NCBI RefSeq assembly: GCF_000247815.1
Contig: NC_021674.1
Span: 83,444,513-83,508,512, forward strand
DNA: 64,000 nucleotides
Direction: 5' to 3'
Source of the DNA: Ficedula albicollis
Lineage: Eukaryota > Chordata > Aves > Passeriformes > Muscicapidae
A program made the position numbers and the translations under genes. This document shows, piece after piece, positions 6,985 through 8,110 of this stretch (positions are counted from its first letter, which is position 1; every line of letters starts with the position of its first letter). The notes beneath the pieces were generated by a model. That model ran no database searches. It was not told the origin of the DNA and saw only the letters and a list, made by a program, of their open reading frames with translations.

Positions 6985-8110
6985 GCTGGGGCTGGCATGG
7001 CTGCAGCCTCCCAAAGGCAGGCAGGCTGCCCCAGCAGTGCCCCCGCGGCTCCCGAGGCACCGCTCCGAGCCCGTGACTCCCCTGCCTCCCGCCGGCGCCA
7101 AGGCCCTCCGCGGCCGCCCTTCCTCAGGGCCGCTCCGGCGGGACGGCTCCGCACCGCGCCGGCCCCCCCCCCCCCCCCCCCCCCCCCCCCCCCCCCCCCC
7201 CCCCCCCCCCCCCCCCCCCCCCCCCCCCCCCCCCCCCCCCCCCCCCCCCCCCCCCCCCCCCCCCCCCCCCCCCCCCCCCCCCCCCCCCCCCCCCCCCCCC
7301 CCCCCCCCCCCCCCCCCCCCCCCCCCCCCCCCCCCCCCCCCCCCCCCCCCCCCCCCCCCCCCCCCCCCCCCCCCCCCCCCCCCCCCCCCCCCCCCCCCCC
7401 CCCCCCCCCCCCCCCCCCCCCCCCCCCCCCCCCCCCCCCCCCCCCCCCCCCCCCCCCCCCCCCCCCCCCCCCCCCCCCCCCCCCCCCCCCCCCCCCCCCC
7501 CCCCCCCCCCCCCCCCCCCCCCCCCCCCCCCCCCCCCCCCCCCCCCCCCCCCCCCCCCCCCCCCCCCCCCCCCCCCCCCCCCCCCCCCCCCCCCCCCCCC
7601 CCCCCCCCCCCCCCCCCCCCCCCCCCCCCCCCCCCCCCCCCCCCCCCCCCCCCCCCCCCCCCCCCCCCCCCCCCCCCCCCCCCCCCCCCCCCCCCCCCCC
7701 CCCCCCCCCCCCCCCCCCCCCCCCCCCCCCCCCCCCCCCCCCCCCCCCCCCCCCCCCCCCCCCCCCCCCCCCCCCCCCCCCCCCCCCCCCCCCCCCCCCC
7801 CCCCCCCCCCCCCCCCCCCCCCCCCCCCCCCCCCCCCCCCCCCCCCCCCCCCCCCCCCCCCCCCCCCCCCCCCCCCCCCCCCCCCCCCCCCCCCCCCCCC
7901 CCCCCCCCCCCCCCCCCCCCCCCCCCCCCCCCCCCCCCCCCCCCCCCCCCCCCCCCCCCCCCCCCCCCCCCCCCCCCCCCCCCCCCCCCCCGAGCGCCCC
8001 GCTCCCGCATCGCCACGGCGCCCTGGAGGAGGGAAGGGACGGCCGGGACCGTGGAGTGCAGCCTACGGCCGGACACCACCACGGCAACTAAACCAGGGCG
8101 CTGAGTTTCT
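6985..8110. promoter_or_regulatory. CpG-dense GC-rich patch interrupted by poly-C (CpG-island-like)
   Basis: The 6985-7162 and 7992-8110 flanks are very GC-rich and dense in CpG (for example ccgcggccgcccttcctcag and gcgccccgctcccgcatcgc), unlike nearly all the rest of the window. Both flank the 829-bp C run. It could be a CpG-island promoter, a GC-biased recombination hotspot, or a decayed GC-rich minisatellite. No coding exon is visible next to it. The very long ORFs covering it are only poly-proline or poly-glycine readings of the C run. Confidence 0.4.
7163..7991. repeat. Uninterrupted 829-bp poly-C homopolymer
   Basis: Every base from 7163 to 7991 is C. It is bordered by ...gcaccgcgccgg on the left and gagcgccccgctcccg on the right. 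A pure C run this long would form G-quadruplex structures on the minus strand and i-motif-like structures on the plus strand. It may instead be a consensus artefact over a hard-to-read GC-rich repeat. Confidence 0.95.

What the first reader, a model, noticed from the sequence alone, without database searches (positions are those of the whole stretch)
7163..7991. 829-bp pure poly-C run
An uninterrupted C homopolymer of this length is extraordinary for genomic DNA. If real, it is a giant G-quadruplex/i-motif-forming tract that should block polymerases and be very unstable. If not, it marks a consensus failure over a GC-rich satellite or missing sequence. The flanking CpG-dense sequence suggests a real GC-rich locus, perhaps a promoter, is being misread.
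Basis: partly seen in the sequence, partly recalled or inferred. Interest (0 to 1): 0.75.

Follow-up and report, generated by a model that had tools for sequence, protein, structure and literature searches.

The report
Poly-C filler over assembly gap
The 829-base run of C is almost certainly not bird DNA but filler standing where this draft assembly failed to read the genome, one of tens of thousands of such runs in the same assembly.

Summary
The run is there: 829 uninterrupted C at 7163-7991. It is almost certainly not genomic sequence. The assembly holding the window (1,118,169,887 bases) has 63,306 C/G runs of at least 34 bases, at least 40 Mb or 3.6% of it, against 6,596 A/T runs. The first 100 runs listed on contig C1 are all C on the + strand, so the letter was set in a scaffold's frame, not locus by locus. 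80 runs abut TCTTCCGATCT, the 3' end of the Illumina TruSeq read primers; the reversed-pattern control finds 1. 2 of 14 runs inspected lie exactly between two copies of one 26- or 28-base sequence, as unmerged contig ends would. 3 of 14 sit in DNA that is not GC-rich. Best reading: short-read scaffold gaps whose placeholder became one letter, perhaps N turned to G by a 2-bit encoder and to C where the scaffold was reversed (inferred). The window's own run bears no adapter or overlap mark; it is judged by its class. Its gap lies in a CpG-rich stretch, of a kind older bird assemblies lose (PMC9516821 passages). The true sequence is unknown.

The parts
7163..7991 (.). 829-base pure poly-C: filler of an assembly gap
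   Evidence: for the string; for the class to which it belongs
6801..7162 (.). GC- and CpG-rich left flank of the gap
   Evidence: 200 bases next to the run: GC 0.76, CpG o/e 0.79; windows 6801-7000 and 7001-7200
7992..8200 (.). GC- and CpG-rich right flank of the gap
   Evidence: 200 bases next to the run: GC 0.65, CpG o/e 0.77; window 8001-8200
6773..6899 (-). CR1-like repeat piece left of the gap (the name CR1 and its orientation are recalled)
   Evidence: Aligns with 8027-8144, score 99 against at most 42 in 100 shuffles
8027..8144 (-). Related CR1-like repeat piece right of the gap (name and orientation recalled)
   Evidence: As above

Best explanation
An assembly artefact. Short-read contigs ended at hard places (CpG-rich stretches, microsatellites, poly-A), a scaffolder joined them across gaps, and the gap placeholder was later written as one ordinary letter. 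Scaffolds were then placed in either orientation on chromosomes, so that one stretch shows C and another G. The 829 C is one such gap, at a CpG-rich place between two CR1-like pieces. Shown here: the huge number of runs, one letter over the block examined, adapter ends and contig overlaps at run edges, and runs in DNA that is not GC-rich. Inferred: that the placeholder was N, and that a 2-bit encoder turned N into G, hence C after reversal.
For: 63,306 C/G runs of 34 or more and at least 40.5 Mb of poly-C/G, against 6,596 A/T runs. The first 100 runs listed on C1 all C; 3 of 3 G in L183 and 5 of 5 C in L194. 80 runs directly followed by the Illumina primer end TCTTCCGATCT, reversed-pattern control 1 (primer sequence in a passage of PMC6791344). 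Exact 26- and 28-base repeats abutting both sides of the run in 2 of 14. 3 of 14 runs have flanks that are not GC-rich. Older Sanger and Illumina bird assemblies lose GC-rich 5' regions (PMC9516821, passages). The code (c>>1)&3 maps N to G.
Against: The window's own run has neither an adapter nor an overlap at its edges, so it is assigned by class. Two runs of N remain in L170, so not every N was converted, unless these are stretches withheld by the operators. The encoder step has mixed support: 6 of 6 adapter-abutting runs on contigs numbered above 500 are G in the contig's own frame, but those on contigs C116 to C312 are 4 C and 2 G, and C73 carries one of each. A second 2-bit code gives A, not G. 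One pair of adapter-abutting runs 455 kb apart on C29 differs in strand, which needs a scaffold join between them.
Confidence: 0.95

Rival explanations
1. A real 829-bp poly(dC)/poly(dG) tract in the bird's genome, able to form G-quadruplexes and i-motifs.
For: The string itself and CpG-rich flanks. No read data were seen that contradict it.
Against: It would have to be one of 63,306 such tracts making up 3.6% of the assembly, with 100 of 100 neighbouring runs on C1 on one strand, adapter ends at 80 run edges, and runs placed exactly between duplicated contig ends.
Confidence: 0.01
2. A read-level error: dark-base poly-G reads of two-colour Illumina machines, or a stalled polymerase in long reads at GC-rich DNA, built into the consensus.
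For: C/G runs at contig ends are common in public virus and prokaryote contigs. Beauclair et al. 2019 mention polypurine or polypyrimidine tract insertions sporadically found in PacBio reads of GC-rich chicken DNA (PMC6792250, passages).
Against: Of 174 runs of 40 or more in the 161 control loci the longest is 193 bases, against 829 here and 1,773 in L194. Read errors would choose the strand locus by locus, unlike the 100 of 100 on C1. The runs also stand in DNA that is not GC-rich (3 of 14).
Confidence: 0.03
3. The gap reading holds, but the letter was put in by some other step than an N-to-G encoder, for example a gap-closing or format-converting program that writes a fixed base. This rivals only the last step of the best explanation.
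For: The encoder is supported by a code table and 6 small contigs only; on C116 to C312 the letters are mixed, and N runs are still found.
Against: The runs read in full (14) are pure C or G, which a known and simple encoder accounts for; I know of no gap-closer that does this (recalled).
Confidence: 0.4

Closest known systems
Assembly gaps at GC-rich 5' regions and CpG islands in older bird assemblies (Kim et al. 2022, PMC9516821; abstract and passages seen)
   Same: Missing sequence at GC- and CpG-rich places in a bird assembly.
   Different: There the sequence is absent or shown as gaps; here the gap is disguised as a homopolymer. I did not show that this place is a gene's 5' region.
Poly-G/poly-C ends of short-read contigs in public virus and prokaryote assemblies (the two-colour dark-G cause is recalled)
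   Same: Artefactual C/G homopolymers in assemblies.
   Different: 142 of 174 lie within 60 bases of an end of the held DNA, and the longest is 193 bases; here the runs are internal, average about 700 bases, and keep one letter over long blocks.
Polypurine/polypyrimidine tract insertions in PacBio reads of GC-rich chicken DNA (Beauclair et al. 2019, PMC6792250; passages seen)
   Same: False low-complexity insertions in GC-rich avian sequence.
   Different: Described there as sporadic and in single reads; the edges here point to Illumina contigs.

Membership tests
Scaffold-gap filler | Present at very many places of the same assembly, whatever the local function | tested here: met
   63,306 runs of 34 or more; 4 of 20 systematic 10-kb samples of C8 hold 6 runs
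Scaffold-gap filler | Edges coincide with contig ends (adapter remnants or unmerged overlaps), for the class | tested here: met
   80 adapter-abutting runs, control 1; 2 of 14 runs between exact 26- and 28-base repeats
Scaffold-gap filler | The same edge marks at the window's own run | tested here: not met
   Best alignment of its 150-base flanks scores 18, under the shuffled maximum of 30; no adapter in the flanks read. Only a minority of runs bear such marks, so this does not exclude membership
Scaffold-gap filler | One letter per scaffold | tested here: inconclusive
   100 of 100 on C1, 3 of 3 in L183, 5 of 5 in L194; adapter-abutting neighbours under 200 kb apart agree in 4 of 4 pairs, under 500 kb in 5 of 6. 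Scaffold limits are not known here
Scaffold-gap filler | N at this place in an earlier version of the assembly, or no reads spanning it | not testable with these tools
   No raw reads and no earlier version are held
Genuine poly(dC) tract | Strand chosen independently at each locus | tested here: not met
   100 of 100 neighbouring runs on C1 on the + strand, while A runs on C1 are listed on both strands
Genuine poly(dC) tract | Spanning reads show hundreds of C | not testable with these tools
   No reads are held
Two-colour Illumina poly-G artefact | Run length limited to about one read; run at a contig end | tested here: not met
   829 bases, internal; control runs up to 193 bases
CpG island (flanks) | GC above 0.55 and CpG o/e above 0.6 over about 200 bases | tested here: met
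   0.76/0.79 left and 0.65/0.77 right; 0.8% of 1,279 background windows have both at 0.6 or more. A CpG-rich repeat is not excluded
CpG island (flanks) | Association with a gene's transcription start | tested here: inconclusive
   10 of 95 ORFs scanned against Pfam, none above a cut-off; no transcript data

The most novel reading that the evidence does not exclude
The unread sequence behind the 829 C is a functional CpG island, for instance a promoter or first exon of a gene or non-coding RNA, with secondary structure that stopped short reads. The filler tells nothing about its content or true length.
Probability: 0.25. Interest if true: 0.15.

Novelty: not a real feature. Interest (0 to 1): 0.08.

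Why it matters
As biology it does not matter. As a warning it does: at least 40 Mb of C and G in this assembly pass for sequence. Such filler would distort GC content, G-quadruplex and microsatellite surveys, contig and gap statistics, and ORF calls (the run alone opens all six frames as poly-Pro or poly-Gly). A scan of this assembly should mask C/G runs of 34 or more first.

Tried and rejected
A real homopolymer and read-level artefacts: see the rivals. Rfam (gathering thresholds) and ARAGORN scans of the window gave nothing. Pfam was tried with 10 of the 95 ORFs of 85 aa or more; the only match was Vint at 14.7 bits under its cut-off of 27. I first took the window for a long-read assembly because of a 1.09-kb hexamer array; the adapter ends turned this round. 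Literature: the listings showed no paper that by title or abstract describes this artefact; I saw passages of six papers (PMC13320880; PMC7757076; PMC6792250; PMC4878770; PMC9516821; PMC6791344) and no whole paper, so I do not claim that it is unreported.

Identity of the assembly: its size and contig number recall FicAlb1.5 (collared flycatcher, an Illumina assembly whose scaffolds were placed by linkage map). This is from memory and untested; the two papers that I looked up for it are not held. A paper using FicAlb1.5 masked homopolymers longer than 10 bp (PMC4878770, passage), which fits but proves nothing.

Not obtained: a wider view of the strand blocks (runs followed by GAGCGC or ACAGA; not answered) and the adapter at the other edge of the runs (not completed).

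Full report
Observation. The window holds 829 uninterrupted C at 7163-7991. Elsewhere C runs reach 10 and G runs 8. GC climbs towards the run from both sides and CpG is dense: o/e 0.79, 0.68 and 0.74 in windows 6801-7000, 7001-7200 and 8001-8200 (the second holds 38 bases of the run), against a median GC of 0.39 and a median CpG o/e of 0.11 in 1,279 background windows from this window and 20 samples of C8.

The run in its genome. The window lies at C8:83,444,513-83,508,512 of an assembly of 1,118,169,887 bases in 21,385 contigs. Sixty C in a row match at 18,912,598 forward and 21,555,202 reverse positions, so at least 40.5 Mb, 3.6%, is poly-C or poly-G. There are 31,171 + 32,135 = 63,306 runs of 34 or more, with a mean of roughly 700 bases (698 if every run exceeds 60). 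A/T runs of the same length number 3,227 + 3,369 = 6,596, although in the window outside the run A and T runs are the longer ones. In 20 systematic 10-kb samples of C8, 4 held 6 such runs, of 172 to 1,562 bases. In the 20 kb on either side of the window there is one more, 1,065 C about 23 kb to the left of this run.

Strand. The first 100 runs listed on C1, between 37,938 and 660,409, are all C on the + strand (the list stops at 100), whereas A runs on C1 are listed on both strands. The 3 runs in L183 are all G and the 5 in L194 all C. Among the adapter-abutting places, neighbours under 200 kb apart agree in 4 of 4 pairs, and under 500 kb in 5 of 6 (the exception is a pair 455 kb apart on C29). 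A genomic tract or a read-level error should choose its strand locus by locus. A letter written in the frame of a scaffold, with scaffolds later placed in either orientation, gives this picture and the near-even totals. Since C and G runs both occur on C8, the letter was set before the chromosomes were put together, not by later storage of the finished sequence (inference).

Edges. I looked at both edges of 14 runs: the window's, L162, L180, L182, three in L183, L187, L190 and five in L194. This is not a random set: L162 was the first C60 match listed (only 51 bases of its right flank are held), L190 was fetched as a neighbour, and L194 was chosen as a dense stretch. In L182 (960 G) the same 26 bases, and in L194:8095 (422 C) the same 28 bases, abut the run exactly on both sides, as when two contigs overlap but are scaffolded apart. 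A third run, L183:7070, has an 18-base repeat in its flanks, but about 130 bases away from the edges, so I do not count it. In L194:532-1499 the run is followed at once by TCTTCCGATCT, with which the TruSeq Read1 and Read2 sequences end (PMC6791344, passage). Genome-wide, 24 C followed by these 11 bases occur 36 + 44 = 80 times, and the reversed pattern once (the same); 63,306 runs divided by 4^11 would give about 0.015. The window's run shows neither mark.

Surroundings. 11 of the 14 runs have GC of 0.55 or more on both sides, and 8 of 14 also a CpG o/e of 0.6 or more on both sides; 3 of 14 are not GC-rich: L182 in a TA microsatellite, L183:2672 after a poly-A, and L183:7070 (flanks of 200 bases, 150). 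So the letter does not mirror what is missing.

Reading. These are gaps between Illumina contigs. Kim et al. 2022 report losses of GC-rich 5' regions and CpG islands in older Sanger and Illumina assemblies of birds (PMC9516821, abstract and passages). How the placeholder became a letter is inferred: the 2-bit code (c>>1)&3 turns N into G, while the other code tried gives A. The 6 adapter-abutting runs on contigs numbered above 500 are all G in the contig's own frame, as that idea asks; but on contigs C116 to C312 they are 4 C and 2 G, and C73 has one of each. Whether those contigs were reoriented scaffolds is not known, so I leave the encoder step near even. Two runs of N (239 and 329 bases, L170) show that some N remain, or are stretches withheld by the tool's operators; I cannot tell which.

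Controls from other collections. Of 174 runs of 40 or more in those 161 loci, 142 lie within 60 bases of an end of the held DNA, which is not always the contig's end, and the longest has 193 bases. They look like dark-G ends of short-read contigs (recalled), a different thing from the runs here.

The locus. The gap lies between two CR1-like pieces, 6773-6899 and 8027-8144, that align with each other (score 99 against at most 42 in 100 shuffles; the name CR1, and with it the bird origin, is recalled). No gene was found with the 10 ORFs scanned. Whether the missing piece is a promoter, part of a GC-rich repeat, or only a short stretch is open. The assignment of the window's own run rests on its class: 63,306 members, and no mark that sets it apart. 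I hold the gap reading at 0.95.

Noticed in passing
window 43514-44604: A 1,091-base (TATATC)n array that differs from the pure repeat at 15 positions, 14 of them in its first 15 bases. In a short-read assembly so long and pure an array may be a product of gap closing rather than real.
   Followed up: partly
window, 16 places, e.g. 537-757, 2231-2405, 4784-4986, 5663-5887, 8190-8313, 8784-8881, 27076-27193: Many tandem duplications of exactly about two copies (period 35 or more, 94% or more alike): 16 in the 64-kb window against 28 in 240 kb of the same contig, 7.5 per 64 kb. They may be unmerged contig overlaps left by gap closing, or real.
   Followed up: partly
G000, e.g. C1:170376-170410 and 79 further places: Illumina primer ends left in the assembly at the edges of poly-C/G runs.
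   Followed up: yes
L170:411-649 and 5464-5792 (C8 near 2.0 Mb): Two runs of N, 239 and 329 bases, in an assembly whose other gaps seem to be written as C or G: gaps of a later step, or stretches withheld by the operators.
   Followed up: no
L061:3832-3990 and L088:3004-3156 (Streptomyces scaffolds): Internal runs of 159 and 153 C in prokaryote scaffolds, probably artefacts of scaffolding too.
   Followed up: no
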